Shown: positions 586-35,263 of the stretch, piece by piece
Layout: each line of letters opens with the position of its first letter
How positions within the stretch are numbered: the first letter of the stretch is position 1
Program-made: the position numbers and the translations under genes
From: Ketogulonicigenium vulgare WSH-001
Lineage (GTDB): Bacteria > Pseudomonadota > Alphaproteobacteria > Rhodobacterales > Rhodobacteraceae
Assembly (NCBI RefSeq): GCF_000223375.1
Contig: NC_017384.1
Span: forward strand, 1,676,501-1,740,500
DNA length: 64,000 nt
Direction: 5' to 3'
The notes under the pieces: generated by a model
What the model saw: only the letters and a program-made list of their open reading frames with translations
Told to the model about the DNA's origin: nothing
The model's database searches: none

Positions 586-1167
586 ATGAACGAGTTGCAG
601 AAGGCCGCAGCCGGACTGCTATATGATGCAAATTACGACCCTGCCTTGCTCGCGAAACGTCGCGCCGCTAAGCGCATCCTATTCGAAATTAACAATCTGC
701 ATCCCGACGAGGACGAGAAACGGACACAGCTGCTGAAGGGTCTGCTCGGCAAAACCGGCCAGAACATCACGTTCGACGGCCAATTCCATTGCGATTACGG
801 ATTTAACATCGAGGTCGGCGAAAACTTCTATGCCAACGTGAACCTTGTGATCCTTGACGGAGCGAAGGTTACCATCGGCAACAACTGCTTCATCGCACCG
901 AATGTTGGCATCTACACCGCTGGTCATCCGCTAGATGCCGAAAGGCGTAACAAGGGGTTAGAATACGCGCATCCCATCACTATTGGAGATGATGTCTGGA
1001 TTGGCGCTGGCGTGACGGTGTTGCCAGGCGCGTCGATTGGTTCGGGCAGTGTAATCGCCGCCGGTTCGGTTGTCCGTGGAGAGGTGCCGCCAAATGTCAT
1101 CTGCGGCGGAAATCCCGGGAATGTCATTCGCGAAATAAATGAACGCGACAGTCAGAAGTATCGCTGA
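586..1167 (+). CDS. Hexapeptide-repeat O-acetyltransferase (Maa/LacA/NodL type), prophage moron
   Basis: The 193-residue product has the maltose/galactoside acetyltransferase layout: a helical N-terminal region (about residues 1-60, including YDANYDPALLAKR) followed by a left-handed beta-helix of hexapeptide repeats (VTIGNNCFIAPNVGIYTAGH, ITIGDDVWIGAGVTVLPG). The His in TAGHPLD matches the usual catalytic histidine. The family transfers acetyl groups from acetyl-CoA to sugar hydroxyls. The gene is rightward inside the leftward tail module, its end abuts the convergent chaperone gene at 1176, and a terminator lies on its left, the typical setting of a phage moron. Modification of host surface polysaccharide to change phage sensitivity is a reasonable inference; the substrate is unknown. 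Confidence 0.88.
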   Translation: MNELQKAAAGLLYDANYDPALLAKRRAAKRILFEINNLHPDEDEKRTQLLKGLLGKTGQNITFDGQFHCDYGFNIEVGENFYANVNLVILDGAKVTIGNNCFIAPNVGIYTAGHPLDAERRNKGLEYAHPITIGDDVWIGAGVTVLPGASIGSGSVIAAGSVVRGEVPPNVICGGNPGNVIREINERDSQKYR

Positions 1168-18550: not shown

Positions 18551-18937
18551 CTACGATGCGCCCAATGCCCCTGAGCGCGCCCAGGGATGCGCGGGATCGA
18601 TCGGCCTGCCATCCTCGTCGTGCCCAGCGATGAAGCCCCTGTGCGTCGCCTCCTGAATGGAGCGGTCGTGACACTGCTTGCACACGGCCATCAAATTGTC
18701 CGGGTCGAGGAACAGATCAATGTCGCCCTTGTGGTCTCGCTTGTGGTGCGCCGTCGCCGCGTTCGGTGGCAGCGGCTCATCCCTCTTCGGCTGCGCCAGC
18801 ATCACCCCGCAACCAGGCCACTGACAGGTCCACATATCCCGCACAAAGATCTGCCGCCGCAGCATCTTCCATGCTTTGAGGTCATACAGGCGACGGTGGC
18901 CGTCAGTGCGACGGAAGCGTGACAGGCGCGATGTGAT
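18551..18937 (-). CDS. HNH endonuclease, terminase-associated
   Basis: The 128-residue protein has DGHRRLYDL, RRQIFVRDMWTCQWPGCG (first zinc Cys pair), then the HNH core ATAHHKRDHKGD with the catalytic His pair, and DNLMAVCKQCHD with the second Cys pair. Phage HNH proteins next to terS are needed with TerL for specific cos cleavage in HK97-like phages. I chose the ATG at 18937 (MITSRLSRF); an alternative start is at 18964. A decayed second copy lies at 20757-21075. Confidence 0.9.
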   Translation of the reverse strand: MTSRLSRFRRTDGHRRLYDLKAWKMLRRQIFVRDMWTCQWPGCGVMLAQPKRDEPLPPNAATAHHKRDHKGDIDLFLDPDNLMAVCKQCHDRSIQEATHRGFIAGHDEDGRPIDPAHPWARSGALGAS

Positions 18938-19366
18938 CATACAAACTTTCAATGCTTTGATCATTACTGACGTAGAGAATCATGACAGCCGGAAAGGCTG
19001 AATGCGCTAGAGAGATCACACTTGAGCTTCCGCAGATTACCGCAAAGGCTAACGAAGTTTGGCTATCCTGCCTCATCCACTGCCATGAAATATCCAGATT
19101 ACACCCGCTCCGGTTGAACAGTTTGCTCCTGAGGGAGGTCAAGGGAAATCCAAATTTAACAGCTCAATCAGCACACAACGCAAGCATTCTGTACATGCGA
19201 AAGTTCGCTATAGTGTCAAAATTGACGCAAATGGCATCCACTTGCAGATGACTATCTACTATTTTGCAACCTATTTAGAGTAGCCTTGTTGTACGGAAGC
19301 TGGTCCTCGCTAACAACAGCGTGTGCCCTAGTACTGTCTTAAATCCATTCCATTTAAAGGTGTGAA
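18938..19366. other. Intergenic region ahead of the outer-membrane gene
   Basis: About 430 bases, visibly more AT-rich than the flanking phage genes. I see no convincing gene. An 89-codon rightward frame from 18982 lacks a good ribosome site and a recognisable product. The region should hold the promoters for the leftward HNH gene and the rightward beta-barrel gene, but I cannot place them with confidence. Confidence 0.5.
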
Positions 19367-20095
19367 ATGAGCATCAATCGTTACATTATCACTTCGGCTG
19401 TAGCAGTCATGGTAGCGGCCAGCGGCGCCTCCGCTGGCGGTCTTACCGCTGAGGTTGTGGAACCCGCAGTTGTAGTGCCTGTCATGTCTGCTCCTGTGGC
19501 TAACCGTTTTGCCGGCGGTTATGTCGGTGGAGCTATCTCCTACTCCTTTGGCGGTGAAGATCGTCTGGGCATTCATACACCCACCGGAACTTACGTTGGT
19601 GACGTTGGGGATCTCGAAGTCAGTGGAGCAGCTGGAAGCCTTTTTGGTGGTTACCGTTGGAACAGCGGCAAATGGCTTTTTGGCCCTGAGCTGAATGTGC
19701 GCTTCGGTGATATTACAGACGACTTGGACTACCCGGGCCCCATTCCTGCAGCTACCAATGCAAGCAGCGAAATCAGTTGGGAAGCGGCGATCCGCGGAAC
19801 CGTAGGCTATGAAATTTCACCGACCAGCATGGTATACGGCTTCGTAGGATACACGCGCAGCGAAGTTGATTATGTCACGACTGGTGCGATCAACCTCGAT
19901 GAGACCGTAAGCCTGGACGGCGTCACTGCGGGGTTTGGTGGTGAGTATGCGTTCAACGACAGCTGGGCGCTTCGCGGCGAATATGCTTATTCCGGCTACG
20001 GCAAAGAAGAGCTGATTGCGCCAGCAGGTGGCCGTGTGACCAATGCTTCAATCGAATTGCATACTATCAGCGTGGGCGTCACATATAGCTTCTGA
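19367..20095 (+). CDS. Outer-membrane beta-barrel protein (OmpA/porin-like 8-strand type)
   Basis: The 242-residue product has a signal peptide (basic start, hydrophobic core SAVAVMVAASGASAGG, likely cut after an Ala near 24), then amphipathic strands (GGYVGGAISYSFGG, LFGGYRWNSGKWLFGPELN, AIRGTVGYEISP, ALRGEYAYSGYG) and ends in HTISVGVTYSF with the terminal Phe needed for outer-membrane assembly. AAAGG lies upstream of the start, and a strong hairpin follows the gene. It stands alone and rightward between the HNH gene and its decayed copy. Inference: a lysogenic-conversion surface protein, possibly affecting superinfection. Confidence 0.88.
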   Translation: MSINRYIITSAVAVMVAASGASAGGLTAEVVEPAVVVPVMSAPVANRFAGGYVGGAISYSFGGEDRLGIHTPTGTYVGDVGDLEVSGAAGSLFGGYRWNSGKWLFGPELNVRFGDITDDLDYPGPIPAATNASSEISWEAAIRGTVGYEISPTSMVYGFVGYTRSEVDYVTTGAINLDETVSLDGVTAGFGGEYAFNDSWALRGEYAYSGYGKEELIAPAGGRVTNASIELHTISVGVTYSF

Positions 20096-20756: not shown

Positions 20757-21075
20757 CCAAGTTAGATTGTTCTTGCAGCACCTGCACACAGCCATCCGAT
20801 TATCGGAGTCGAGGAGCAGATCGAGGTCGCCCTTTTGGTTCCGCTTCTGGTGCGCGGTTGCTGCGTTAGGTGGCGGCTCGTTATTCTTCTACTGTTCCAA
20901 CATTATACCGAAGCCAGTCAACTGACAGCCCCACATATCCCTTACAAAGACATGTCGCCTCAGCATCTTCCAGACTTCGAGGCCATGCAGGCGACGGTGG
21001 CCGTCGCTATGACGGAAACGACTTAGCCCAACGTTTCGGCTCGTGGCCACATCCTTGACTTTAAAGGCCCGAGAC
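20757..21075 (-). pseudogene. Decayed second copy of the HNH endonuclease gene
   Basis: Read leftward, this stretch encodes SRFRHSDGHRRLHGLEVWKM, LRRHVFVRDMWGCQLTGFG, then a TAG stop, then PPPNAATAHQKRNQKGDLDL and DNRMAVCRCCKN. Each part aligns with the intact HNH protein at 18551-18937. The catalytic His pair HH has become HQ, one zinc Cys has become Phe (CGC to GFG type change), and the frame is broken, so it is inactive. DNA similarity is also visible, for example around 20961-21005 against 18863-18907. It is a direct, diverged duplication or a remnant of an older prophage. Confidence 0.88.
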
Positions 21076-21247
21076 CCCAGCTTCATCACATGAGCTTGAT
21101 GAGACCATACCAGCTGCCAGCGTAATACCCCGCTGGCCACCGCCCCGGCGATTGGGGCGCATTCTCTCTTGCTATCTCCTCACATCCCTCTCCTCGCCGA
21201 CTTGATCTTTGCATCGGTCAGCATGGGTACACACAAGGAAGTCTCAA

Positions 21248-21637
21248 GTGAGCAAAACCAAATTGCCGCGCGTCGTCATATCGGACGCTACAATGGCCGT
21301 CCTCGAGCGGCTGGCCGAAGGCTTGGAGCGCCGCAATCCAGAGCTCGCAGAGCATTTCGTCGACGAACTGTCCCGCGCCAAAGTCGTGAAAAGCGCGGCC
21401 TTACCCGTCGACACCGTCGATCTGGGCAGCACTGTCACATTTCGCGACGAGACTACTGGTAAAAGCCAGACCGTCACTCTAGCGCTGCCAGAGAACGCGG
21501 ACATCAATGAAGGCCGTATCTCGGTTGCGACTCCGATCGGTGTTGCACTGATCGGCCTCAGCGCCGGTGCCAAGTTCAGCTGGCTTGCGAACACAGGCAC
21601 CAAACACGAGCTGTTGGTCGAAGATGTCCACCGCTGA
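21248..21637 (+). CDS. Rnk/GreA C-terminal-domain protein (RNA polymerase-binding)
   Basis: The 129-residue product has a short N-terminal helical region (MAVLERLAEGLERRNPELAE) and a GreA/GreB C-terminal domain: VDLGSTVTFRDETTGKSQTVTL, LPENADINEGRISVATPIGVAL and IGLSAGAKFSW. This is the layout of Rnk, the nucleoside diphosphate kinase regulator that binds RNA polymerase near the secondary channel but lacks the long Gre coiled coil. I chose the GTG at 21248, which has AAGGAAG 7 bases upstream; an ATG at 21209 is less well placed. It could modulate host transcription from the prophage. Confidence 0.85.
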   Translation: MSKTKLPRVVISDATMAVLERLAEGLERRNPELAEHFVDELSRAKVVKSAALPVDTVDLGSTVTFRDETTGKSQTVTLALPENADINEGRISVATPIGVALIGLSAGAKFSWLANTGTKHELLVEDVHR

Positions 21638-21702: not shown

Positions 21703-21801
21703 TAGGGTCCTGTTCATAATTTAGTCGGATACCAGTGGAACAGGTTGCTTATTCGCGCGTTCCGCATCTGTGAAACCGGATAACAGAGAGGATTGTCTGG
21801 C

Positions 21802-22188
21802 ATGGCTTTTGATCAAACGGGCGTCTCTCCCAGCGCCAAAGTCTTAGTCGTCGAAGATGATCATCAGTTGCGCAGGGTGGTGACCATGGTCATCGAACGC
21901 GCCGGCCTTTCTGTTCTTGCTGTAGCCAACGCGGATGACGCGATAGTTGTGCTCGCGGGAAATGATCCGGTTTCCGTCCTATTCACAGATGTGGACATGC
22001 CGGGTTCTATGAATGGAATCGATCTAGCGCACCGCGTGTCGTGCAATCACCCCACGATCCGGGTGATCGTTGCCTCCGGCCGTAGTTCAGTCGATGTGGC
22101 AGAGCTTCCCGCTGGCGCAGAGTTTTTTAGAAAGCCCTATGATATTCACTGCTTAACCCGTGCGCTCTACGGCACAGCGCAGGTCTGA
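21802..22188 (+). CDS. Stand-alone response-regulator receiver protein
   Basis: A 128-residue single-domain receiver: KVLVVEDDHQLRRVV with the acidic pair near residue 16, VLFTDVDMPG with the phospho-acceptor Asp near 60, VIVASGRSS with the Ser/Thr switch region, and FFRKPYD with the conserved Lys. No output domain follows. I chose the ATG at 21802, with GAGAGGA 9 bases upstream; a TTG at 21793 is also in frame. No kinase gene is nearby, so it would have to be served by a host kinase or act as a phosphate sink. Confidence 0.88.
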   Translation: MAFDQTGVSPSAKVLVVEDDHQLRRVVTMVIERAGLSVLAVANADDAIVVLAGNDPVSVLFTDVDMPGSMNGIDLAHRVSCNHPTIRVIVASGRSSVDVAELPAGAEFFRKPYDIHCLTRALYGTAQV

Positions 22189-26075: not shown

Positions 26076-26348
26076 TTACATGCCCATCGCTTGCTTATAG
26101 AGGTCGAAGATCGCTTCTTCCTCGGCCACGTCATTCTGGTCGCGCTTTCGCAGCGCGATCACCTTGCGCAGGACCTTGGTGTCGTAGCCGCGCCCCTTGG
26201 CTTCGGCCATGACCTCCTTCATCTGCTCAGCGACGTACTTCTTCTCAGCCTCGAGCGCTTCATAGCGCGCCACGATCGAGCGGATCTCGTCGGCCGCCAC
26301 CCCCGCGACCTTCTCGGCCACATTGATGTCCGCCTCGGTGTTCTTCAT
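26076..26348 (-). CDS. GapR family (DUF2312) DNA-binding protein
   Basis: A 90-residue protein, from MKNTEADINVAEKV, that matches the DUF2312/GapR family: EIRSIVARYEALEAEKKYVAEQ, then MKEVMAEAKGRGYDTKVLRK, RKRDQNDVAEEEAIFDLYKQ and the terminal AMGM. Members are alphaproteobacterial nucleoid proteins; Caulobacter GapR clamps around overtwisted DNA ahead of forks and RNA polymerase. Here it sits in the phage replication operon, so a role in phage DNA supercoiling during replication is likely. The longer form starts at a TTG overlapping the upstream stop. Confidence 0.92.
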   Translation of the reverse strand: MKNTEADINVAEKVAGVAADEIRSIVARYEALEAEKKYVAEQMKEVMAEAKGRGYDTKVLRKVIALRKRDQNDVAEEEAIFDLYKQAMGM

Positions 26349-26356
26349 CGGGATGC

Positions 26357-26617
26357 TCAATTGTCCGCCTCCCGCTGAATCTGGCTGAGGCGAACAAATG
26401 CCTGGTCGATCGTCAGATCAGAGTTTTTGGTTTGCCAGGCTTTTGTGGCACCTATGAGCCAAAGGATGAGAAAGCAAAAACCCACCCACTGCATAGCCAC
26501 GCTTTGCGTCACAATGCCGATGCCAATGACACCGACCTGCGCACCCGCGATGTAAATAGCGGATCGAATTTTGGGCTTGTTAGTCACATTGATCGTGATC
26601 GTAAAATCTTTGGTCAT
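26357..26617 (-). CDS. Small membrane protein in the early operon
   Basis: An 86-residue protein: an N-terminal beta-like stretch (DFTITINVTNKPKI), two hydrophobic segments (IYIAGAQVGVIGIGIVTQS and WVGFCFLILWLIGATKAW) and a C-terminal helix (DQAFVRLSQIQREADN). The ATG at 26617 overlaps the stop of the methylase gene (ATGA). It is probably an inner-membrane protein of unknown function, possibly involved in superinfection exclusion or membrane attachment of replication. Confidence 0.65.
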   Translation of the reverse strand: MTKDFTITINVTNKPKIRSAIYIAGAQVGVIGIGIVTQSVAMQWVGFCFLILWLIGATKAWQTKNSDLTIDQAFVRLSQIQREADN

Positions 26618-27195: not shown

Positions 27196-27422
27196 CGCCG
27201 CGCCCCTTTATGTTTGGGCCAGCGATAACCGCGATCGACAACAGCGGCGCGCTCACCGCTTTCGCGCAGATCGGCTTCGAATACCGCCTGCGTGGCCATA
27301 CCGATCGTGCTTTTTCCAACACCGAGAATGTCGCCAACTTCGGACAGTGAAATGCCGCGCACGCGCATCGCTAGCGCGCGCAGGATCAGCTCATCATCCT
27401 GGCGGGTAGGAAGGGCACTCAT
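27192..27422 (-). CDS. Small HTH protein, paralogue of its neighbour
   Basis: A 76-residue protein with QDDELILRALAMRVRGISLSEVGDILGVGKSTIG, a helix-turn-helix region, followed by VFEADLRESGERAAVVDRG and a basic end. It aligns over its whole length with the next gene upstream (27419-27649): shared D-E-L-x-L-x-ALAMR, the DADLRESGE-type block and Y-x-W-K end. The ATG at 27422 overlaps the upstream stop (ATGA). It may be a DNA-binding regulator of the early operon. Confidence 0.72.
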   Translation of the reverse strand: MSALPTRQDDELILRALAMRVRGISLSEVGDILGVGKSTIGMATQAVFEADLRESGERAAVVDRGYRWPKHKGARR

Positions 27423-27649
27423 GGCCGACCTCCCCTTCGCTTTTTCCACTGGTAGCCAAGCTCAACGACCGCTGCAGGCTCCCCGCTTTCGCGAAGGTCA
27501 GCGTCTCGCACCGCGATGGTGAAGAGCCCCACATTGCTGCGCGGCATGCCCAGCGCGCCGCCGATCACATCGAGAGGCTTGCCAGACTGGCGCATGGCCA
27601 ACGCCTGTAGCAGCAGTTCATCATGTTGCCGGGAGAGGGCAATGGTCAT
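27419..27649 (-). CDS. Small HTH protein, paralogue of its neighbour
   Basis: A 76-residue protein: HDELLLQALAMRQSGKPLDV, an HTH recognition helix region IGGALGMPRSNVGLFTIAVR, then DADLRESGEPAAVVELGYQW and a basic C-terminus. It is clearly homologous to the gene at 27192-27422, so the pair arose by tandem duplication with strong divergence in the recognition helix, which suggests different DNA targets. The ATG at 27649 overlaps the Cro-like gene's stop (ATGA). Confidence 0.72.
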   Translation of the reverse strand: MTIALSRQHDELLLQALAMRQSGKPLDVIGGALGMPRSNVGLFTIAVRDADLRESGEPAAVVELGYQWKKRRGGRP

Positions 27650-27897
27650 TTTGATGCCCCCTCACCTTGATCGCAAAGCGGCTGAGCTCCATGTACTGTG
27701 ACATGAGATTTCATTCCAAAAAGCTCGGGTGGACAGGTCAAGCCTGCCTCATCAGCGATCGCTTTTACGGCGATGAACCAGGATGATGGGAAACGGCCTC
27801 GAACGATCGCATTGCTTACAGCCGTGGGCAAAACACCAACTGTATCTGCCATTTTTCTACGCCCAAGGGCGTTTGCTAGATTGGATGCTGCTGTCAT
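27646..27897 (-). CDS. Cro-like repressor, first gene of the leftward early operon
   Basis: An 83-residue protein with a YdaS/Cro-type helix-turn-helix: TAASNLANALGRRKMADTVG, VLPTAVSNAIVRGRFPSSWF. The rest (AVKAIADEAGLTCPPELFGM) fits a small dimerisation part. It is divergent from the CI-like gene, and three palindromic operators fill the gap. GAGG lies close before the ATG at 27897; an upstream in-frame start at 27918 would run through an operator. Repressing the lysogenic promoter to favour lytic growth is the expected role. Confidence 0.8.
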   Translation of the reverse strand: MTAASNLANALGRRKMADTVGVLPTAVSNAIVRGRFPSSWFIAVKAIADEAGLTCPPELFGMKSHVTVHGAQPLCDQGEGASK

Positions 27898-27909
27898 GAC
27901 CTCACTATG

Positions 27910-27975
27910 TCCACACAATGTGGATTATAGCAAGTCCACATTTAGTGGTTTGCCTAAGATTTCACAATTTGTGAA
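27910..27975. promoter_or_regulatory. Three-operator switch region between cro-like and cI-like genes
   Basis: Three 15-bp sites with 6-3-6 geometry: TCCACA-CAA-TGTGGA at 27910-27924 (perfect palindrome), TCCACA-TTT-AGTGGT at 27935-27949 (imperfect), and TTCACA-ATT-TGTGAA at 27961-27975 (perfect). Centres are 25 and 26 bases apart. The arrangement resembles lambda OR and is expected to bind the CI-like and Cro-like proteins. The divergent promoters must lie here, but I could not identify clear -35 and -10 boxes. Confidence 0.78.
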
Positions 27976-27985
27976 TTATTCAAGC

Positions 27986-28255
27986 ATGGGCAACAAGCGT
28001 TCTGAACCTGGACAATATGCTGAAATTGGTGATCGCCTCGAGGCGATCCGTAAGGTTTTCTCAGATCTCAACCAAAAGGACTGGGCTGAAAAACACCACT
28101 TTGGCCATTCCACATACAACAACTGGGTTACCGGAATCAGGCGTATACCCGTCGAAAGTGCCGAGGCGCTCTGCGACCTCTACGGCGTTGACTTGGACTT
28201 CATATACCGCGGAAGAAGAGACGGTCTGCCGGACAATCTCAAAAAGGTACTCTGA
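27986..28255 (+). CDS. CI-like prophage repressor (short HTH form)
   Basis: An 89-residue protein from MGNKRSEPGQYAEIGDRLEA containing an XRE-type helix-turn-helix: IRKVFSDLNQKDWAEKHHFG, HSTYNNWVTGIRRIPVESAE, ALCDLYGVDLDFIYRG. The block is typical of alphaproteobacterial phage repressors, and it lacks a LexA-like autocleavage domain, so induction would not use classical RecA-triggered cleavage of this protein. The start ATG at 27986 has no strong ribosome site, so a leaderless transcript is possible. It diverges from the Cro-like gene across three operators. Confidence 0.8.
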   Translation: MGNKRSEPGQYAEIGDRLEAIRKVFSDLNQKDWAEKHHFGHSTYNNWVTGIRRIPVESAEALCDLYGVDLDFIYRGRRDGLPDNLKKVL

Positions 28256-28497
28256 TCACATCTCCCCATGTGCTTGACCACATGGTCTAGGGGCACGTCC
28301 AGCTCATCTGCAATTTCGATCATCCGATCCAGCCGCCTGTCTATTTCTTTTTCCGCCGTGCACTCGCCCCTTCTCAAGCCATACTAAACTTGTTCCCGTT
28401 TTGTTCAATCCCTCTTTGTCAGGATGGCAAATTATGTTGTGGACAGTGAGGCTTATAGTTTCCGAGGATGCCTGGAGCAGAATCGGGAGAACAACGT

Positions 28498-29550
28498 ATG
28501 TCGATCGACGCAACACTTAAGGTATTGACTGAACGCGTCCAACAGCACGCGAACACGATGCTCACGGAGGAGGCTGTCAAAACTGCGGTTGTCCTCCCGT
28601 TCCTCCAGGCACTCGGCTACGACGTATTTAACCCGGGTGAAGTCATTCCCGAGTTTACGGCAGATGCTGTAGGTAAGAAGGGCGAAAAGGTAGACTACGC
28701 GATAAAGCTCGATGGCGAGATTCGCATATTGATCGAATGCAAGCCGATCAGCACCAACTTGGACAAAGTGCACCTCGCACAACTTTACAGATACTTCTCC
28801 GTGACTAGCGCAAAATTTGCGGTTCTCACGAACGGGAGATTTTTCCACTTCCACAGCGACTTAGAAGAGCCAAATAAGCTTGATACAAGGCCATTTTTCA
28901 CCTTCGACATCACCGAGCCGAATAGCCAGGTGCTTGGTGAACTCAAGAAGTTCGAGAAATCTGGCTTCGATGTAGACGGCATTCTCGCGAATGCTGAGCG
29001 CCTGAAGTACACATCCGCGTTGAAAACCGAGATCAACAAGCACATGGACGCACCATCAGATGAATTCGTGCGGGTCTTAGCCGCGCCTGTTCACGAGGGC
29101 CGCTTCACTGCAGCCGTGCTCGATCAATACCGAGGGCTAGTAAAGTCGGCATTCCGTGAAATAATCCGCGACTCTGTCCAAGAACGTTTGTCCTCCGCAT
29201 TAGCAACAACTGACACTGCTGCTGAAATTGCCGAAGAACCGGTCGTTCCAGATGCTGAGATTGTGACGACTCAGGATGAAGTTGAAGGATTCATGATCGT
29301 CAAAGCGATTGTGTCTTCGGTGATAAAGCCCGGCAGGGTCAGCATGCGTGACCAAAAGAGCTACTGCGGAATACTCGCTGACGACAACAACCGTCGTCCG
29401 ATAGCTAGGCTCCACTTCAACCGCTCTACCAAATACCTAGGCCTCTTCGATGGAGAAGCAGAAGAAAGAGTAGTCGTTGAAAGTTTAGATGACATCTACT
29501 CTCACGCCGAGCGTCTACGGCAGACAGCCATCAAATACCCGACGCCCTGA
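28498..29550 (+). CDS. HsdR N-terminal-domain nuclease-like protein, stand-alone
   Basis: A 350-residue protein whose first half is a type I restriction HsdR N-terminal domain with a PD-(D/E)xK core: VVLPFLQALGYDVFNPGEV, E-x6-D-A-x5-G-E-KVDYAIKLDGEIRILIECKP (Asp and ECK are the catalytic set), then FAVLTNGRFFHFHSD. The second half has helices plus a C-terminal strand-rich domain (SYCGILADDNNRRPIARLHF). No motor, HsdM or HsdS gene follows. GGGAG lies 8 bases before the ATG at 28498; a start at 28468 is less well placed. It is downstream of the repressor in the same direction and ends at a terminator, so it is probably made in the lysogen. A defence role is inference. Confidence 0.85.
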   Translation: MSIDATLKVLTERVQQHANTMLTEEAVKTAVVLPFLQALGYDVFNPGEVIPEFTADAVGKKGEKVDYAIKLDGEIRILIECKPISTNLDKVHLAQLYRYFSVTSAKFAVLTNGRFFHFHSDLEEPNKLDTRPFFTFDITEPNSQVLGELKKFEKSGFDVDGILANAERLKYTSALKTEINKHMDAPSDEFVRVLAAPVHEGRFTAAVLDQYRGLVKSAFREIIRDSVQERLSSALATTDTAAEIAEEPVVPDAEIVTTQDEVEGFMIVKAIVSSVIKPGRVSMRDQKSYCGILADDNNRRPIARLHFNRSTKYLGLFDGEAEERVVVESLDDIYSHAERLRQTAIKYPTP

Positions 29551-29580
29551 TAGCGCCCCACCCGAACAGATTTCAAGCAG

Positions 29581-29608
29581 AGGCCCGCATTATCAGTGCG
29601 GGCCTTTT
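29581..29608 (+). terminator. Rho-independent terminator of the lysogeny unit
   Basis: Perfect 9-bp arms AGGCCCGCA and TGCGGGCCT with a 7-base loop, followed by a TTTT run, 31 bases after the HsdR-N gene stop. It separates the repressor-nuclease transcript from the following early operon. Confidence 0.85.
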
Positions 29609-29671
29609 CGCATCCAACATCCGATTCGGCGGATTTCACGCAACTCTCTTGCCTCATCATGACAACTAAAA

Positions 29672-29715
29672 TCCACCATGTGTGAATTTTAAATTGCATA
29701 TCCACATTTAGTGGA
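29672..29715. promoter_or_regulatory. Second operator pair ahead of the rightward early operon
   Basis: Two further sites match the switch operators: TCCACC-ATG-TGTGAA at 29672-29686 and TCCACA-TTT-AGTGGA at 29701-29715. The second shares the 14-base string TCCACATTTAGTGG with the middle switch operator and extends to a perfect ATATCCAC/GTGGATAT palindrome. Centres are 29 bases apart. They sit 60-100 bases before the first gene, so the operon is probably controlled by the same repressor. Confidence 0.78.
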
Positions 29716-29776
29716 TATTTTAACTTCATATCCCGCAGCGACTCACCCTCGCAGACGGTCACAGATGGAGAACTTG

Positions 29777-30007
29777 ATGAGCATTCTTTACGCCCACCCT
29801 GACGGCCTGATGTCGGCTCAGGACCTGCGTGAAACGCTGGTTCGCGACCACATCCGCGCAAGCCGCGTCACTCTGGCCCGGCCCCGCGGCTTCTTTGACA
29901 TTTCCCTGCACCGCGACTGCGAGGTCGACGGCGCCGCGCTGGCCGACTGGGCTTTGCGTCGCCCCGCAAACGGCCCTTCGGCGCCCGCCGCCTCGCTGGC
30001 GTCCTGA
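29777..30007 (+). CDS. Hypothetical protein, first gene of the rightward early operon
   Basis: A 76-residue protein from MSILYAHPDGLMSAQDLRET; GGAG lies 6 bases before this ATG at 29777, better than the longer starts at 29711 and 29765. The middle has VRDHIRASRVTLARPRGFFD and the end is Ala/Pro-rich. No family is recognised. It is followed after 10 bases by the first acyl carrier protein gene and preceded by the operator pair, so it is the leading gene of the operon. Confidence 0.6.
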   Translation: MSILYAHPDGLMSAQDLRETLVRDHIRASRVTLARPRGFFDISLHRDCEVDGAALADWALRRPANGPSAPAASLAS

Positions 30008-30017
30008 GGCTACCGCG

Positions 30018-30275
30018 ATGAACGGCTTCACGAACACAGAGGCGCGGCTGATCTTCCTGATCGCCAAGGATTTTCACATCGCGGCCGAGATCCTGCCCAG
30101 CACGAGCCTGCGCGGTGACCTGCGCATGGACAGCCTCGATCTGGTCGACCTCTGCGTAAAAGCCGAGGATCTGTTCGACATCGAGATCAACGATGCCGAG
30201 GCGACCGAGGCCACGAGCATTGCCGACCTCGCGCGGCTGATCGACCACGTTTTAGCCGAGGAAGCTGCAGCATGA
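30018..30275 (+). CDS. Acyl carrier protein homologue 1 (prophage-encoded)
   Basis: An 85-residue protein with the four-helix ACP pattern: LIFLIAKDFHIAAEILPSTS, the phosphopantetheine site RMDSLDLVDL with Ser39 in the DSL motif, then EDLFDIEINDAEATEATSIA and DLARLIDHVL. The acidic recognition helix after the serine is present. GAGG lies 8 bases before the ATG at 30018. No acyltransferase, ketosynthase or synthetase gene is in the element, so the protein would need host phosphopantetheinyl transferase and acyl partners. A second homologue lies 480 bases downstream. Confidence 0.88.
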   Translation: MNGFTNTEARLIFLIAKDFHIAAEILPSTSLRGDLRMDSLDLVDLCVKAEDLFDIEINDAEATEATSIADLARLIDHVLAEEAAA

Positions 30276-30457
30276 GCCGCGTCTCCTTCGCCCTCTCGAT
30301 TGCCCCGATGATACTGGGGATCGCGCTGCTTGCGTGGCATGCGTGGCCGACCATCCAGTGGGCGCGTGCACTGTCGCCAGCGGCTGGCCCCCATATGACC
30401 TGCGCCACTGATCCGGTCATCAACTGCCGCCTGCCCAGCGCGGAGACCGGGCAATGA
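30272..30457 (+). CDS. Small membrane-anchored protein between the two ACP genes
   Basis: A 61-residue protein with one hydrophobic segment (FALSIAPMILGIALLAWHAW) and a short external tail containing two Cys residues (MTCATDPVINCRLP). The ATG overlaps the ACP1 stop (ATGA), and its stop overlaps the next gene, so it belongs to the coupled chain. It resembles no family I know. The Cys pair might form a disulphide in the periplasm, but this is speculation. Confidence 0.6.
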   Translation: MSRVSFALSIAPMILGIALLAWHAWPTIQWARALSPAAGPHMTCATDPVINCRLPSAETGQ

Positions 30458-30759
30458 GCGCGGCAATGATCCACGAGCTTGAAAGCCTCATCGCGCGCAG
30501 CAAGCGGCTCGGAACCTGGTCGCACACCGCGTCATCGGTCTATGGCAGCGAAATGACCAAGCCACACGCCCTAATACTGGCCGCCCCTGTTGAGCTGCCG
30601 CATTACGATCAGGCGCCCCCTTTTGCTGTGGCGATCGCAGGTAGCCTGGTGGCGCAGCCCGATCAGCTGCTGAGCGAGATCGCCGATCAGCTCAATGCCG
30701 TGCCGGTCATCGCGCAATATTGCTTGGACCTGCTGCGGGAAAAGGAGTCCGGCCGATGA
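30454..30759 (+). CDS. Hypothetical protein between the two ACP genes
   Basis: A 101-residue protein: an N-terminal helix (MIHELESLIARSKRLGTW), a middle part with PHALILAAPVELPHYDQAPP and FAVAIAGSLVAQPDQLLSEIAD, and a helical C-terminus (VIAQYCLDLLREKE). It overlaps both neighbours by ATGA. No family is recognised. Given its place between two ACP genes, a function linked to them is possible, but nothing in the sequence shows it. Confidence 0.6.
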   Translation: MSAAMIHELESLIARSKRLGTWSHTASSVYGSEMTKPHALILAAPVELPHYDQAPPFAVAIAGSLVAQPDQLLSEIADQLNAVPVIAQYCLDLLREKESGR

Positions 30760-31016
30760 CCGTGTCCGACGCCCAGCGCGGCCTCGCCGACATCCTCGAA
30801 GAGCTGTTCGGCCTGCTGCCGGAACGCACCGCGCCCACCGCGCACCTGCGCCACGACCTGGGCCTAGACAGCCTCCACCTGATCGAGCTGTTCATGGAAA
30901 TCGAGGTCCGCTTCGGCATCGAAATCTCCGACGCCGCAATTGAATCCGTCCAGACCGTCGCGGGCCTGTCCTGCGTGATCGAGCATCTGGTTACCCAGAA
31001 AAGGAATGCAGCATGA
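30756..31016 (+). CDS. Acyl carrier protein homologue 2 (prophage-encoded)
   Basis: An 86-residue protein with the ACP fold pattern: SDAQRGLADILEELFGLLPE, a GLDSLHLIEL phosphopantetheine site with Ser39, then FMEIEVRFGIEISDAAIESV and a last helix LSCVIEHLV. It is more similar to canonical ACP than the first copy (LGLDSLHLIELFMEIE). The ATG overlaps the upstream stop, and its stop overlaps the sliding-clamp start. The two copies share Ser39 and length but are well diverged, so they probably have separate partners. Confidence 0.9.
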   Translation: MTVSDAQRGLADILEELFGLLPERTAPTAHLRHDLGLDSLHLIELFMEIEVRFGIEISDAAIESVQTVAGLSCVIEHLVTQKRNAA

Positions 31017-32146
31017 CCGATACTGTTTCAGCAATCATCGACCGCCATGCGCTGCGCAAAGCCATGACATCGCTACAGCGCACCGTGCAGCAATGGGCAG
31101 CAATTCCCGCCCTCAAATATATCTCAATTTCTAGCGGGCTGGGCGAGGTCACACTTCGCGCCACCGATCTGGACAACTTGCTGACAATCAAGCTCGAGGC
31201 AGAGACAACGGGCACCGTTCCGTTTCTAGTCTCTGCGGAGGTGCTGCAAAAGTTTGCCTCTTTGGCGGCAGGCCCAGTGACGGTCACGCGCACACCCGAT
31301 ATCGAGGGCAAGGATGCTCTGATCACGATCACAGATCAGGAAACCACCCTGCGGCTGCGCGAGCGCATCCAGCACGATGACTTCCCCACCGTTCCAGCTT
31401 GGGACATGAAAGACGCTGCCCGCTTCACCGGGAGCGGCGCGGAGCTATCGCGCATTCTCGATCTATCTCGCCATTGCGTCAGCACCGAAGAGACCCGGTA
31501 TTACCTCAATGGGATCTATCTGATCACAGCACCCGAGCGCAGCACGCTGCGCGCTGTCGCCACAGACGGCCATCGGATGGCAGTAATCGACAGCAATATC
31601 GAAGCGCCCAACCTCGCAGGCGTCATTTTTCCAAGATTTGCGCTCGATGTGTTTCGCGGGCTGCTAGATCCCAAGTCGAACACCCCAATCAAAATGCAAT
31701 TTGAGGAAAACAGGGGCATCATCGAGGGTGACGACTGGATCCTTCACTCCAAGATGATCGACGGCACATTCCCTGATTACACGCGGGTCATCCCCAAACA
31801 TGAAACGAACTGCGAGGCGCACTTCACCCGCGCAATCGTGACAAAGGCGCACCGCCTCTCACAAGCAGTCAGGGGCCACATCGCGGCGGCCGCAACAATT
31901 ACCTCGGATGGCAAGATGCACCTGATGCATGAAGGTGAGGACGAATCTGTATCCGTGCCTGTTGGGGCATCACCCAACTTCGATCTTGGGCGCCATGGCT
32001 TCAATGTCAAATATCTGAACAAACAGGCACAGGTCACGCCGGAATTCACCCTTCGCGCGTCCACTGAACGGCCTAACGATCCAGCGACCATAGTTTCCGA
32101 TGATCCCGACGCCTGCTGGATACTGATGCCGATGAGGGCGGCATGA
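31013..32146 (+). CDS. dnaN: DNA polymerase III beta subunit (sliding clamp), phage-encoded
   Basis: A 377-residue protein, the normal clamp length. It has three clamp repeats: the first with RHALRKAMTSLQRTV and TLRATDLDNLLTIKL, the second with YYLNGIYLITAPE and the highly conserved AVATDGHRMAV, the third ending in CWILMPMRA, the usual clamp C-terminus. It would form a dimeric ring that tethers polymerase. Clamp genes on temperate phages are uncommon; this copy could replace the host clamp on phage DNA or bind phage partners. Its start overlaps the ACP2 stop by ATGA. Confidence 0.95.
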   Translation: MTDTVSAIIDRHALRKAMTSLQRTVQQWAAIPALKYISISSGLGEVTLRATDLDNLLTIKLEAETTGTVPFLVSAEVLQKFASLAAGPVTVTRTPDIEGKDALITITDQETTLRLRERIQHDDFPTVPAWDMKDAARFTGSGAELSRILDLSRHCVSTEETRYYLNGIYLITAPERSTLRAVATDGHRMAVIDSNIEAPNLAGVIFPRFALDVFRGLLDPKSNTPIKMQFEENRGIIEGDDWILHSKMIDGTFPDYTRVIPKHETNCEAHFTRAIVTKAHRLSQAVRGHIAAAATITSDGKMHLMHEGEDESVSVPVGASPNFDLGRHGFNVKYLNKQAQVTPEFTLRASTERPNDPATIVSDDPDACWILMPMRAA

Positions 32147-32676
32147 TGCGTGACCACATTTTTGACGCACTTACACCCAACGCGACATCTGAACGGAACC
32201 TGCGCGAAATCCTGCGGGGTGGCTACTGCACCCGCTGGCACGCCAACGCCGACATGGCCCATATTCGCGAGACCTTGGCAGAACATCACGCGCGGGTCGC
32301 GCAGATCATCCTTGCCCTGCATCCCTCGCCCAGCGCGGCGCTGCTTGACGCGGCATTGCATCACGACGCAGGCGAGCCGCGCGTTGGCGATGTGCCTTGG
32401 CCAGCCAAGCGCGACAACCCTGCCCTCGCCCAGGCGATTGACGAGGTCGAGCGTGCCGCCCGCGAGCGCCTTGGCATCCACATCAATCTTTCTACGATCG
32501 ATAAGGCGTACCTGAAACTGTCCGATCGGCTGGCTGGCTACATGCACGTCCAGCACACCGCGCCGCATCTGCTTGCCCAGCGCGACTGGCTCGAAGATCG
32601 CCTCGCGATCGAGCTGCAGGCGGCACAGTTGGGCGTGGCGCCTGCGGTGTCTCGCCTTATCGAGGGCGCGTCCTGA
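32143..32676 (+). CDS. HD-domain phosphohydrolase (YfbR-like 5'-nucleotidase)
   Basis: A 177-residue HD-domain protein: [20 protein letters not shown] (first His), [14 protein letters not shown] (second His), then [20 protein letters not shown] with the HD pair and the conserved G-D-x-P-W that follows in YfbR-type 5'-deoxynucleotidases. These enzymes dephosphorylate deoxynucleoside monophosphates and so change nucleotide pools. It lies between the clamp and SSB genes, in keeping with a DNA metabolism role. The start ATG overlaps the clamp stop. Confidence 0.88.
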
Positions 32677-33143
32677 TGTCAGGCTCGGTCAACAAGGTCT
32701 TCCTGATCGGCAACCTAGGGCGCGACCCCGAGGTGCGCAGCTTTCCCAATGGCGGCAAGGTCGTGAACCTCAACATCGCCACCAGCGAGACGTGGCGCGA
32801 CAAGAACACCGGCGAGCGCAAGGAGCGCACGGAATGGCACAAGGTCGCCATCTTCAATGACGGCCTCGCCAACGTCGCGGAGAAGTATCTGCGAAAGGGC
32901 AGCAAGGTTTACATCGAAGGCAAGCTGGAGACCCGTAAATGGCAGGATCAGTCCGGCACCGATCGCTACACGACCGAGATTGCACTCCGCCCATTCTTCG
33001 GCCAGCTCACCCTGCTCGATGGCCGCAGCCAGGATGACAATCGCCACGATGGCGAAGGCTATTCATCCGGCAGCTACCAGCGCCCCGATGACACCGCCCA
33101 GCGCGCCGCACGTGATCTGGGCGACGATGAAATCCCATTCTGA
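32676..33143 (+). CDS. ssb: Single-stranded DNA-binding protein
   Basis: A 155-residue SSB with the OB fold ([59 protein letters not shown]), a short Gly/Ser/Gln-rich linker, and the acidic tip DDEIPF that contacts replication proteins. Length is slightly below host SSB. It protects single strands in replication and recombination. It overlaps the HD gene stop and is followed directly by the next gene. Confidence 0.96.
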
Positions 33144-33493
33144 TGGAGCGGCCAGCATATCTACTGTTCGACCAGAACAAGCTCAAGCGCGCCGAGCTGG
33201 ACGATCTGCTCGACGACATAGCAGCCTCTGGCATCGACATCCCGGACGGGACACGAGCAAACATCCCAACGATGCGCAAATTCATCGCGGAATTGCGCCG
33301 ATTGTATTGGGACGCACATCACAGCGCTCGAGCATCAACATCACCGCGCCCAACCGCGCCAACTGCCACCCATCACTCGCGAAAACCCAAAGGACTGCCC
33401 GACTACGTCACATGGAAAATCATCCCAGCATCAGAGATAGACGCTTGGCTCACGACGCTACCGCGCAAACCGCTGTTCGGAGAGTCAGAATGA
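33143..33493 (+). CDS. Hypothetical early-operon protein
   Basis: A 116-residue protein starting [19 protein letters not shown]; the ATG overlaps the SSB stop. The N-terminal part is helical and charged (DDLLDDIAASGIDIPDG), the middle has MRKFIAELRRLYWDAH, then a Thr/Pro-rich linker and a final PDYVTWKIIPASEIDAWL. No family is known to me. The reading frame is coupled to both neighbours, which supports a real gene. Confidence 0.62.
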   Translation: MERPAYLLFDQNKLKRAELDDLLDDIAASGIDIPDGTRANIPTMRKFIAELRRLYWDAHHSARASTSPRPTAPTATHHSRKPKGLPDYVTWKIIPASEIDAWLTTLPRKPLFGESE

Positions 33494-33723
33494 CATCGCG
33501 CCCTTTCTTGGCCGAGGCCCATGCCTGCCGCATCCACGGCTTGATCAAACAGACCGGCGGCGCGATCACCGTTGCGCAGCTGTCTGACCGCCTCGGTATA
33601 GCACCGATCACTGTGCGCGATATCGTCCAGGCACGCGGCTGGACTCGCCGGATCGGCCGTAAGGCCCCCATCATTCATCTGGTCGACCCCGAGGTCGACG
33701 TTGTCGAACTCCATTTTGATTGA
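33490..33723 (+). CDS. Small HTH DNA-binding protein
   Basis: A 77-residue protein with a winged helix-turn-helix pattern: CRIHGLIKQTGGAITVAQLS, DRLGIAPITVRDIVQARGW, then a short strand region ending HLVDPEVDVVELHFD. The ATG overlaps the upstream stop (ATGA). It is the last intact gene of the coupled early operon and may act as a late regulator or as part of the excision control. The function is not shown by the sequence. Confidence 0.68.
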   Translation: MTSRPFLAEAHACRIHGLIKQTGGAITVAQLSDRLGIAPITVRDIVQARGWTRRIGRKAPIIHLVDPEVDVVELHFD

Positions 33724-33735
33724 GAGAGTCCAGCC

Positions 33736-33816
33736 ATGAGTACACGTCTTTCCGACCTCAACGCCCATCTCTTCGCCCAGCTCGAGCGTCTTTCGGCAAG
33801 CAATACATCAGCTTAA
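33736..33816 (+). CDS. Tiny ORF resembling the N-terminus of a conserved phage protein family
   Basis: A 26-residue frame, MSTRLSDLNAHLFAQLERLS and a short end, stopping at 33814. The pattern L-x-DLN-x-HLFAQLERL matches the start of a small phage protein family of about 60-70 residues that lies near integrase or excisionase genes. Here the frame ends after 26 codons, so it is a truncated remnant or a minimal form. The ribosome site for the following excisionase gene starts just after its stop. Confidence 0.42.
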   Translation: MSTRLSDLNAHLFAQLERLSASNTSA

Positions 33817-33831
33817 GAGGAGGGAATGATC

Positions 33832-34173
33832 ATGAGTGCCCAGCGCGCACAGAAACCTGACATCAAGCACTACACGGCCGACACACTTGCAGAGCATTGG
33901 GAATGCTCAGGCGAGACCGTCCGAAAAATGCTAAGAGATGGCAAGCTACAGGGCTTTCGAGTCGGAAAGTCTTGGCGAATTCCCAAGTCGATCGTCGAGG
34001 AACACGAACAATGTCAGAATATCGAGTCGGACGACTCCGTGGTGGATACTGTGTCACCTGGACAGATCCAGACGGAGGGCGGCGCAGATACAAGCTCGAC
34101 GCAACAACTCCAACGGAAGCCGAAGCTGAAGCTCGATCGATCTTTCACCAAGCGGCGGCTGCGCGCGCTCTGA
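33832..34173 (+). CDS. xis: Excisionase-like HTH protein
   Basis: A 113-residue protein. The N-terminal part matches the excisionase/HTH_17 domain: HYTADTLAEHWECSGETVRK, MLRDGKLQGFRVGKSWRIPK, SIVEEHEQ. The rest (about 55-113) is Gln/Asp-rich and overlaps the integrase gene by 163 bases in another frame. AGGAGG lies 8 bases before the ATG at 33832; the ATG at 33826 is closer and less likely. It is placed and oriented as in lambda, where Xis precedes Int and directs excision. Confidence 0.82.
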   Translation: MSAQRAQKPDIKHYTADTLAEHWECSGETVRKMLRDGKLQGFRVGKSWRIPKSIVEEHEQCQNIESDDSVVDTVSPGQIQTEGGADTSSTQQLQRKPKLKLDRSFTKRRLRAL

Positions 34174-35012
34174 CGGTTTCAGACATCTGGTCCGCTTATC
34201 GAAAGGACAAGGCAGGCCGCAGGATTGACCACCACATGATCGACACTGGCAAGACGATTCTGCCCGTATTTGGCGCCCTGGAGCCACATCAGATTACGAC
34301 TCAGGATTGCAGAGATTATGTTGAGAAGCGGCGGGCGATCGGTAGAAAAGACGGTACGATTCGTACTGAACTCGGGCATCTGCGCACAAGCCTATCATGG
34401 GCGGAAAAGCACCGTATGATTGAGCATGCGCCGCATATCGAGCGCCCCGCAATGCCGTCTCCAAAGGAGCGCTATCTCTCGCGCGCCGAGATTGATCGTC
34501 TGTTGTCAGTGGATGGCGACCCCCACATCAGGCTAGCCATTTTATTGATGCTGACCACCGCCGGCCGCGTGGGCGCGATCCTTGAACTCACCTGGGATCG
34601 GGTCGACATGATCAGGGGTCAGATTAATCTTCGCCTGGAGGGCGAAGGGCCACGAAAGGGCCGCGCGGTTGTCCCGATCAACAATACACTGCGCGCTGCG
34701 CTGGTCGCAGCTAAGGCACATGCAATGTCGGAATTCGTCGTCGAATATGCAGGCGGCCAAATCGGTTCGATAAAGACGGGCTTCCGAAACGCTTGCGCAA
34801 AGGCAGGTCTTAAGGGAGTTACCCCGCACGTGCTTCGGCACACGGCCGCGGTCCATATGGTCGAGGCAGGCGTGCCAATTCTCGAAGTTGCGCAGTACCT
34901 TGGGCACAGCAACCCGAGCGTCACGTTCAGCACGTATGGGCGATTCTCACCCGACCACCTTCGAAAGGCGGCAGACGCGCTCGAATTCGGAAAGCTTCGC
35001 TCGGTTCAATGA
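34011..35012 (+). CDS. int: Tyrosine-type site-specific integrase
   Basis: A 333-residue phage integrase. The N-terminal arm-binding part is MSEYRVGRLRGGYCVTWTDP, followed by a core-binding SAM-like domain (ALTVSDIWSAYRKDKAGR), then the catalytic domain with R186 (GRVGAILELTW), H273 and R276 (HVLRHT), H299 (YLGHSNPSVT) and the nucleophile Y309 (FSTYGRF). GAGGA lies 10 bases before the ATG at 34011, which I chose over an in-frame start at 33897. The gene ends 44 bases from the 3' end of tRNA-Thr, which is therefore the likely attachment site. Confidence 0.96.
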   Translation: MSEYRVGRLRGGYCVTWTDPDGGRRRYKLDATTPTEAEAEARSIFHQAAAARALTVSDIWSAYRKDKAGRRIDHHMIDTGKTILPVFGALEPHQITTQDCRDYVEKRRAIGRKDGTIRTELGHLRTSLSWAEKHRMIEHAPHIERPAMPSPKERYLSRAEIDRLLSVDGDPHIRLAILLMLTTAGRVGAILELTWDRVDMIRGQINLRLEGEGPRKGRAVVPINNTLRAALVAAKAHAMSEFVVEYAGGQIGSIKTGFRNACAKAGLKGVTPHVLRHTAAVHMVEAGVPILEVAQYLGHSNPSVTFSTYGRFSPDHLRKAADALEFGKLRSVQ

Positions 35013-35056
35013 ACCTACGATAACTCTCTCGCGGTGTCTTAAGTGTCTGGAAAGGC

Positions 35057-35131
35057 TGGTGCTGTGAGAGAGGATTGAACTCTCGACCTCTCCCTTACCA
35101 AGGGAGTGCTCTGCCACTGAGCTACCACAGC
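35057..35131 (-). tRNA. tRNA-Thr (anticodon GGT)
   Basis: On the minus strand the sequence starts GCTGTGGTAGCTCAG and ends with the acceptor strand TCACAGC, discriminator A and an encoded CCA, 75 nt in all. The anticodon stem CTCCC/GGGAG closes a loop TTGGTAA, so the anticodon is GGT, and GTTCAATCC gives the T arm. The 3' end faces the integrase gene, so the prophage appears to have inserted at the tRNA 3' part while keeping it intact. Confidence 0.97.
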
Positions 35132-35263
35132 AACCTTGAGGCGGCTTTTAGCGAAGCTGTCGCCATGCGCAAGGGGGAAATTTACTTGACGCTGCGGCGG
35201 GATGCGCGGGGATCGCGGCAGGACGCGCTGGACGGATCGCGCCGCCAGGATTAAATTACCCCC

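What the first reader, a model, noticed from the sequence alone, without database searches (positions are those of the whole stretch)
30018..31016. Two acyl carrier proteins in a prophage early operon
Seen: two ACP-like genes of 85 and 86 residues, each with a DSL phosphopantetheine site at Ser39, separated by a small membrane-protein gene and an unknown gene, all four chained by ATGA overlaps and followed by a sliding clamp, nucleotidase and SSB. Known: ACPs carry acyl or other thioesters after 4'-phosphopantetheine attachment and are also contacted by non-lipid proteins. Inference: the pair may serve a phage-specific acylation of a protein or membrane component, or act as decoys. No acyl-transfer enzyme is in the visible prophage, so host partners, or genes outside the window, would be needed.
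Basis: partly seen in the sequence, partly recalled or inferred. Interest (0 to 1): 0.85.

Follow-up and report, generated by a model that had tools for sequence, protein, structure and literature searches.

The report
Paired phage acyl carrier protein genes
A bacterial virus lying dormant in a bacterial chromosome carries two different small proteins of the kind cells use to hold fatty acids, set in line with its DNA-copying genes; single ones are known in phages but what they do is untested, and pairs turned up in a few other phages too.

Summary
In detail: two ACP genes (85 and 86 aa, Ser39 in DSL) flank a small membrane-protein gene and an orphan gene, ATGA-coupled and running into clamp, nucleotidase and SSB. 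Both pass Pfam's PP-binding cut-off; the ACP1 model has the ACP fold with Ser39 starting helix 2. The prophage spans 44.3 kb between 51-bp repeats at tRNA-Thr. A 14-bp operator-like core occurs exactly twice in the 3.28-Mb genome: beside the repressor gene and upstream of this operon, so repressor control is likely. ACP1 and ACP2 are not recent duplicates (30-31% identity). The four-gene chain was found only in records of this prophage; a relative of the membrane gene lies in a sister-species region without ACPs. Phage ACPs are known, including in Rhodobacteraceae prophages. New here: ACP pairs in four other phage lineages, two with a serine-less member, and serine loss in all seven CBA120-type phage 'ACPs' read. 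I favour binding of host ACP partners over fatty-acid supply, at low confidence. New variant of a known kind.

The parts
30018..30275 (+). ACP1, 85 aa, phosphopantetheine site Ser39 (DLRMDSLD)
   Evidence: PF00550 6.5e-10, phrog_5934 8.2e-11; AlphaFold2 model pLDDT 91.7, S39 is the first residue of helix 39-53; top 12 PDB fold matches carry ACP titles
30272..30457 (+). ORF61, small membrane protein, one N-terminal hydrophobic segment, two Cys near the C-terminus
   Evidence: sequence; no family match; relative in a same-genus genome, E 5.5e-9
30454..30759 (+). ORF101, orphan protein
   Evidence: no family match; 1 of 195 genomes, the own one; only its own sequence in the protein database search; low-confidence model, pLDDT 62.5
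30756..31016 (+). ACP2, 86 aa, phosphopantetheine site Ser39 (DLGLDSLH)
   Evidence: PF00550 4e-12, phrog_5934 1.6e-13
29768..30007 (+). 79-aa ORF in front of ACP1, perhaps the first gene of the operon
   Evidence: ORF only (start ATG read); no family match
29699..29717 (.). operator-like palindrome TATCCAC-N5-GTGGATA at the head of the operon
   Evidence: core TCCACATTTAGTGG occurs twice in the whole genome, here and at 27935; also scored as terminator-like
27910..27948 (.). two sites of the same type (27910-27923, 27935-27948) between the repressor ORF and a divergent short ORF
27773..28255 (+). repressor ORF (HTH in its second half; real start probably 27989, by eye)
   Evidence: phrog_8 2e-9; HTH_3 2.1e-5
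31013..32146 (+). sliding clamp, ATGA-coupled to ACP2
   Evidence: DNA_pol3_beta_2 4.8e-17, phrog_947 1.3e-45
32143..32676 (+). YfbR-like HD nucleotidase
   Evidence: PF12917 1.8e-9
32676..33143 (+). single-strand DNA-binding protein
   Evidence: PF00436 1.5e-36
33897..35012 (+). integrase
   Evidence: phrog_1 4.9e-61
35052..35102 (.). attachment core overlapping tRNA-Thr; identical 51-bp copy at L059:6764-6814, 9.2 kb left of the window
586..1167 (+). O-acetyltransferase of the Mac/hexapeptide kind inside the prophage
   Evidence: PF12464 9.3e-17, PF00132 6e-15

Best explanation
On loss of the prophage repressor the operon at 29768-33493 is transcribed and makes two diverged ACPs together with the clamp, nucleotidase and SSB (inferred from the shared operator). 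The host's AcpS attaches phosphopantetheine to Ser39 of one or both (inferred). They then bind host proteins that normally recognise AcpP through its helix II, competing with or retuning them during phage replication, rather than supplying fatty acids to a phage pathway (inferred). ACP1 keeps the acidic helix II; ACP2 has lost charge there (DSLHLIELFMEIEVRFG), so the two probably engage different partners (inferred). Shown: ACP families and the ACP1 fold, the serines, the gene coupling, the shared operator-like sites, one AcpS-family gene in the host genome. Not shown: expression, modification, any partner.
For: Family, fold and serine. Operator-like core at exactly 2 places in the genome, the repressor region and this operon. 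One host AcpS-family match. No fatty-acid synthase, ketoacyl synthase or thioesterase among the 58 prophage ORFs scanned. In other phages the ACP fold is kept without the serine: ICP1_a, CBA120, phiMAM1, five more CBA120-type proteins, L122_b; there selection cannot be on acyl carriage by that residue. Helix-II acids 6, 4 and 6 for ACP1, ACP2 and host AcpP.
Against: Both copies here keep DSL, which favours a real carrier role. The serine-less cases are in other phages, not close relatives. The 29698-29718 stem also scores as terminator-like, and the promoter scan found nothing at the operon head (1 site in 27400-35200, at 32471, under the shuffle mean of 3.2). The longer 19-bp palindrome with up to 3 mismatches is not significant by count: 3 matches, 1.03 expected, 12 of 100 shuffles reach 3. 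No partner is known, and the papers seen test no phage ACP.
Confidence: 0.4

Rival explanations
1. Auxiliary metabolic genes: extra holo-ACPs that feed host fatty-acid or lipid synthesis during infection or lysogeny.
For: Serines intact; a host AcpS-family gene; the published reading of acpP in Rhodobacteraceae prophages: 8 phages, and three prophages with fabG, acpP and fabF (PMC8224337, passages seen). ACP2 scores nearly as well against host AcpPs (36.4-37.3 bits for two relatives and the own AcpP) as against most phage ACPs.
Against: No fab gene beside them and none among the 58 ORFs scanned; both lie under the AcpP equivalog cut-off (40.9 and 43.3 against 70.45 bits); the tree does not group them with host AcpP.
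Confidence: 0.25
2. Dedicated carriers for acylating a phage or host component, with host enzymes or the prophage O-acetyltransferase (586-1167).
For: An acyltransferase-family gene does lie in the prophage; a membrane-protein gene lies between the ACPs.
Against: That family normally uses acetyl-CoA (established knowledge) and the gene is about 29 kb away beside tail genes; small membrane-protein neighbours are not enriched at viral ACP loci (8 of 126 loci; background 84 of 849 small ORFs); the ORF61 relative in a sister genome lies in a stretch with no ACP.
Confidence: 0.12
3. Adaptors of the replication or recombination proteins they are coupled to, using the ACP fold as a protein-binding module.
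For: ACP2 is ATGA-coupled to the clamp; the phage ACP that groups with ACP1 (L066, support 99/97) abuts a DnaQ-like ORF downstream of a RecT-like ORF (both named by eye).
Against: Related clamps without an ACP nearby: none found in the five stretches read (G089, G047, three Paracoccus phages). Coupling is common in phage operons.
Confidence: 0.13
4. Passenger genes without a selected role.
For: Close relatives of ACP1 and ORF101 were not found in other genomes searched.
Against: Two intact, diverged ACPs with the core residues and coupling; pairs occur in other phages.
Confidence: 0.1

Closest known systems
PHROG 5934 phage acyl carrier protein (moron / auxiliary category)
   Same: Both ACPs match it (8.2e-11, 1.6e-13); phage-borne, stand-alone.
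   Different: Two diverged copies in one operon with a membrane-protein gene and an orphan gene between.
acpP of Rhodobacteraceae prophages (Forcone et al. 2021, PMC8224337, passages seen)
   Same: ACP gene in prophages of the same or a neighbouring bacterial family.
   Different: No fabG/fabF neighbours here; not grouped with host AcpP; a pair. I did not compare the sequences of that paper.
ACP pairs found here in Vibrio phage ICP1, Pseudomonas phage HRDY3, contigs L141/L142 (T4-like by eye) and contig L122
   Same: Two ACP-fold genes, adjacent in the first three, about 1.2 kb apart in L122.
   Different: No ORF61-ORF101 arrangement between them; in ICP1 and L122 one member lacks the serine; HRDY3's first is the end of a 236-aa protein.
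Host AcpP (L001) and solved bacterial AcpPs
   Same: Fold, serine, acidic helix II for ACP1.
   Different: ACP1 is 25-26% identical to host AcpP; both ACPs are below the AcpP equivalog cut-off; no fab gene beside them.

Membership tests
Acyl carrier protein / PP-binding (PF00550) | profile score over the curated cut-off | tested here: met
   39.6 and 46.6 bits against 20.8
Acyl carrier protein / PP-binding (PF00550) | four-helix ACP fold with the serine at the start of helix II | tested here: met
   ACP1 model pLDDT 91.7, S39 starts helix 39-53; top 12 Foldseek rows carry ACP titles. ACP2 not modelled; it matches solved ACPs by sequence, best 5.4e-10
Acyl carrier protein / PP-binding (PF00550) | 4'-phosphopantetheine attached in vivo | not testable with these tools
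   needs mass spectrometry; a host AcpS-family gene exists
Housekeeping AcpP (TIGR00517) | equivalog cut-off 70.45 bits | tested here: not met
   40.9 and 43.3 bits
Housekeeping AcpP (TIGR00517) | groups with host AcpP in a tree | tested here: not met
   ACP1 with phage L066 (99/97), ACP2 with phage L007 (92/86, under the tool's star), the four host AcpPs elsewhere; 22 of 39 inner branches open
Phage ACP (PHROG 5934) | profile match | tested here: met
   8.2e-11 and 1.6e-13
Prophage fabG-acpP-fabF module | fabG and fabF beside the ACP | tested here: not met
   neighbours are ORF61, ORF101 and the clamp
Specialised ACPs in NCBIfam | curated cut-off of a specialised ACP model | tested here: not met
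   every NCBIfam hit listed for ACP1 (13) and ACP2 (20) is under its cut-off

The most novel reading that the evidence does not exclude
Phages of several unrelated lineages carry a two-member ACP module, one member able to hold phosphopantetheine and the other diverged or serine-less, that takes over the host's ACP interaction hub early in infection, as a takeover or counter-defence device rather than as lipid metabolism.
Probability: 0.15. Interest if true: 0.85.

Novelty: new variant of a known kind. Interest (0 to 1): 0.5.

Why it matters
The papers seen here label phage ACPs as fatty-acid auxiliary genes without a test. A pair under likely repressor control, pairs in four other phage lineages, and loss of the carrier serine in some phage ACPs suggest that the label is wrong or incomplete for part of them, and give simple tests: is Ser39 modified, is it needed, what is bound. 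The CBA120 protein, which lacks the serine, matches 279 of 50,697 phage records (269 over at least 80% of its length; a few weak matches have the serine), and 23 of the 40 rows listed are annotated as acyl carrier protein; I read 7 such proteins.

Tried and rejected
Searched with little gain: protein-database searches with ACP2, ORF101 and ACP1 returned one entry each, 98 to 100% identical to the query (the tool needs shared 5-residue words, so distant ACPs are missed). One genome-contig scan with ACP1 gave one locus, an Amycolatopsis contig (43% over residues 25-78), not followed. ACP1 in 394 family genomes hit the own genome and one other at E 1e-6, the latter a DLGADSLD ACP like the host's. 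A family search with alignment A2 was flooded by AcpP-like matches, 292 of 295 genomes. ORF101 folded alone gave pLDDT 62.5 and was not searched further.

Rejected: a link of phage ACPs with a neighbouring small membrane protein (8 of 126 loci against 84 of 849 background small ORFs; adjacency within 60 nt, simple hydropathy cut); recent duplication of ACP1 and ACP2 (30-31% identity; different tree neighbours, though by pairwise score ACP1 is about as near to ACP2, 33.8 bits, as to its best phage matches, 34.4-34.6); a four-gene chain shared with other phages. L057 shows ACP, membrane protein, 108-aa protein in that order; I did not test a sequence link and treat it as chance.

Limits and rows dropped before counts: in the neighbour count L150 and L151 (this same prophage) were left out of 128 loci; L141 and L142 share the same ACP-pair sequence (as L075 and L077) and were both kept. 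One search kept the best 80 of 229 loci, and four of those show a ketoacyl-synthase-like neighbour cluster and four a reductase-like one (by eye), so some are host-type DNA. Loci reach at most 4 kb to each side there, so wider pairs are missed. Pattern scans demand DS in the motif and cannot speak on serine loss; the serine figures rest on phage records picked by me from tblastn lists. ICP1's second ACP was not seen as a second place by tblastn, so pair counts are lower bounds. HRDY3 was read because it showed two places.

Full report
What is there. Window 30018-31016 holds ACP1, ORF61, ORF101 and ACP2, each start overlapping the previous stop as ATGA, and a fourth ATGA joins ACP2 to a sliding clamp, followed by a YfbR-like HD protein and SSB. 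Both ACPs carry D38-S39-L40. They match PF00550 over its cut-off and PHROG 5934, a phage ACP family filed under morons and auxiliary genes. AlphaFold2 with 16 aligned sequences gives ACP1 a confident four-helix model (pLDDT 91.7) with Ser39 as the first residue of helix 2, and the top 12 PDB fold matches carry ACP titles. ACP2 was not modelled; it matches solved ACPs by sequence, best 5.4e-10. PF00550 finds four places in the own genome: these two, a 77-aa AcpP and one in a 1330-aa open frame.

The element. The tRNA-Thr at 35057-35131 overlaps a 51-bp stretch repeated exactly 9.2 kb left of the window, so the prophage spans 44,339 bp of contig C1, both repeats included. Terminase, portal, capsid, tape measure, tail fibre, integrase, replication and repressor genes match PHROGs. 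The host genome has 3 contigs and 3.28 Mb; I believe it is Ketogulonicigenium vulgare, from recall of its replicon sizes; no call names it.

Control. TCCAC-N5-GTGG occurs at three places in the window, 27910, 27935 and 29701 (5 matches counting both strands, 0.50 expected, 0 of 100 shuffles reaching 5). The 14-mer TCCACATTTAGTGG occurs exactly twice in the whole genome, at 27935 beside the repressor ORF and at 29701 upstream of the operon. The first site lies between the repressor and a divergent short ORF that I take for a cro gene by eye (no PHROG match). This makes repressor control of the ACP operon likely. Against it: the stem at 29698-29718 followed by T's also scores as terminator-like, no sigma-70-type promoter was found at the operon head, and the 19-bp palindrome with up to 3 mismatches is not significant by count (3 matches, 1.03 expected, 12 of 100 shuffles). 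The 27935 copy has no T run.

Relatives. ORF101 was found in 1 of 195 genomes, the own one; ACP1 in 2 of 394 family genomes at E 1e-6, the own one and one with a host-type ACP. In viral contigs the genes of the chain were found together only in two records of this same prophage; the other loci hold distant single ACPs. Five stretches around related clamps hold no ACP. ORF61 matches 13 of 195 genomes at E 0.01, only one besides its own convincingly (G001, same genus, E 5.5e-9). That relative has an in-frame stop and lies in what looks by eye like a prophage early region, near an SSB similar to ours (2.6e-68), and no ACP was found in the 14 kb read. So ORF61 is not tied to the ACPs.

Phage ACPs at large. 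Host AcpP as query matches 112 of 50,697 phage records, one of them (HRDY3) at two places. An ACP profile on 137 sources (128 viral-contig loci, 8 others and the window) finds two ACP ORFs in the window, L150 and L151 (the same prophage), L114 (HRDY3), L141 and L142 (one sequence) and L122. Phage ICP1 has two adjacent ones; the query ICP1_a matches 13 records, ICP1 and JSF6. So pairs were seen in this prophage and four other lineages, and are rare among what was searched; the counts are lower bounds, and HRDY3 was read because it showed two places.

Serine. Of 18 ACP-like ORFs from 16 phage loci, 15 have DS[LMFI] (for ICP1_b the script matched elsewhere, but its own motif is DSLD); phiMAM1, CBA120 and ICP1_a have Glu or Asp instead. 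With five more CBA120-type proteins read, all 7 lack the serine; six of the records are filed as Ackermannviridae, one (Croc_ER14) has no family given (two motifs read by eye). L122_b has Tyr. Both copies in the window have Ser.

Tree. On 42 rows ACP1 pairs with L066 (99/97), ACP2 with L007 (92/86), and the four host AcpPs lie apart; 22 of 39 inner branches are open and end branches are long. Pairwise scores are flatter: ACP1 scores 34.6 bits with PhiXhv-12, 34.4 with L066 and HMSP1, 33.8 with ACP2; ACP2 scores 44.9 with PhiXhv-12, 41.4 with L007 and 36.4 with host AcpP. I claim only that the pair is not a recent duplication or a recent capture of host AcpP.

What it may do. No fatty-acid enzyme was seen among 58 prophage ORFs scanned, which is not every ORF. 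Together with serine loss in other phages, this leads me to favour partner binding by a phosphopantetheinylated ACP over lipid supply, at 0.4; a carrier role remains open because both serines are kept.

Literature. Phage ACPs are in print: Erythrobacter phage R6L (PMC5463345, passages: 'their function remains unclear'), Vibrio phage R16F (PMC10152775, passages and one section), Alteromonas phage R22Y (PMC11705849, passages), Rhodobacteraceae prophages (PMC8224337, passages: acpP in 8 phages), and a putative ACP of phage Sajous1 retrieved once in a mass-spectrometry table (PMC10892097, one passage). The listings (open-access papers only) showed me no title on a paired phage ACP; no query asked for serine loss as such.

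Noticed in passing
L243, L245, L253-L257: Phage proteins of the CBA120 and phiMAM1 kind, mostly annotated 'acyl carrier protein' in the records listed, have Asp or Glu in place of the phosphopantetheine serine in all 7 read.
   Followed up: partly
L244:2087-2749 (Vibrio phage ICP1): Two adjacent ACP-like genes, one with DEL, one with DSL; both begin with a similar MxxFGYEI stretch, and Vibrio phage helene's ACP has a like NIFGWNI.
   Followed up: partly
window 586-1167: Maltose O-acetyltransferase-like gene on the + strand beside tail genes of the prophage.
   Followed up: partly
L059:8334-9536 and L059:10831-11814 (prophage part left of the window): Two Hint-domain proteins, and a short SRAP-family ORF at L059:7490-7897.
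   Followed up: no
window 18551-18964 and 20889-21140: Two ORFs with similar sequence by eye, the first an HNH match, the second shorter and without a match, flank an outer-membrane beta-barrel gene (19367-20095); perhaps a cassette between repeats.
   Followed up: no
window 21209-21637, 21793-22188, 26076-26360: Rnk/GreA-like factor, single-domain response regulator and GapR-like DNA-binding protein in the prophage.
   Followed up: no
L077 (= L142), L079 (= L136): In contigs that look T4-like by eye the ACP gene or pair lies after a capsid-like gene; the related contig L079 shows only the first ACP.
   Followed up: partly
L114:5280-5990 (Pseudomonas phage HRDY3): The first of the two ACPs is the C-terminal part of a 236-aa protein with an unknown N-terminal part.
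   Followed up: no
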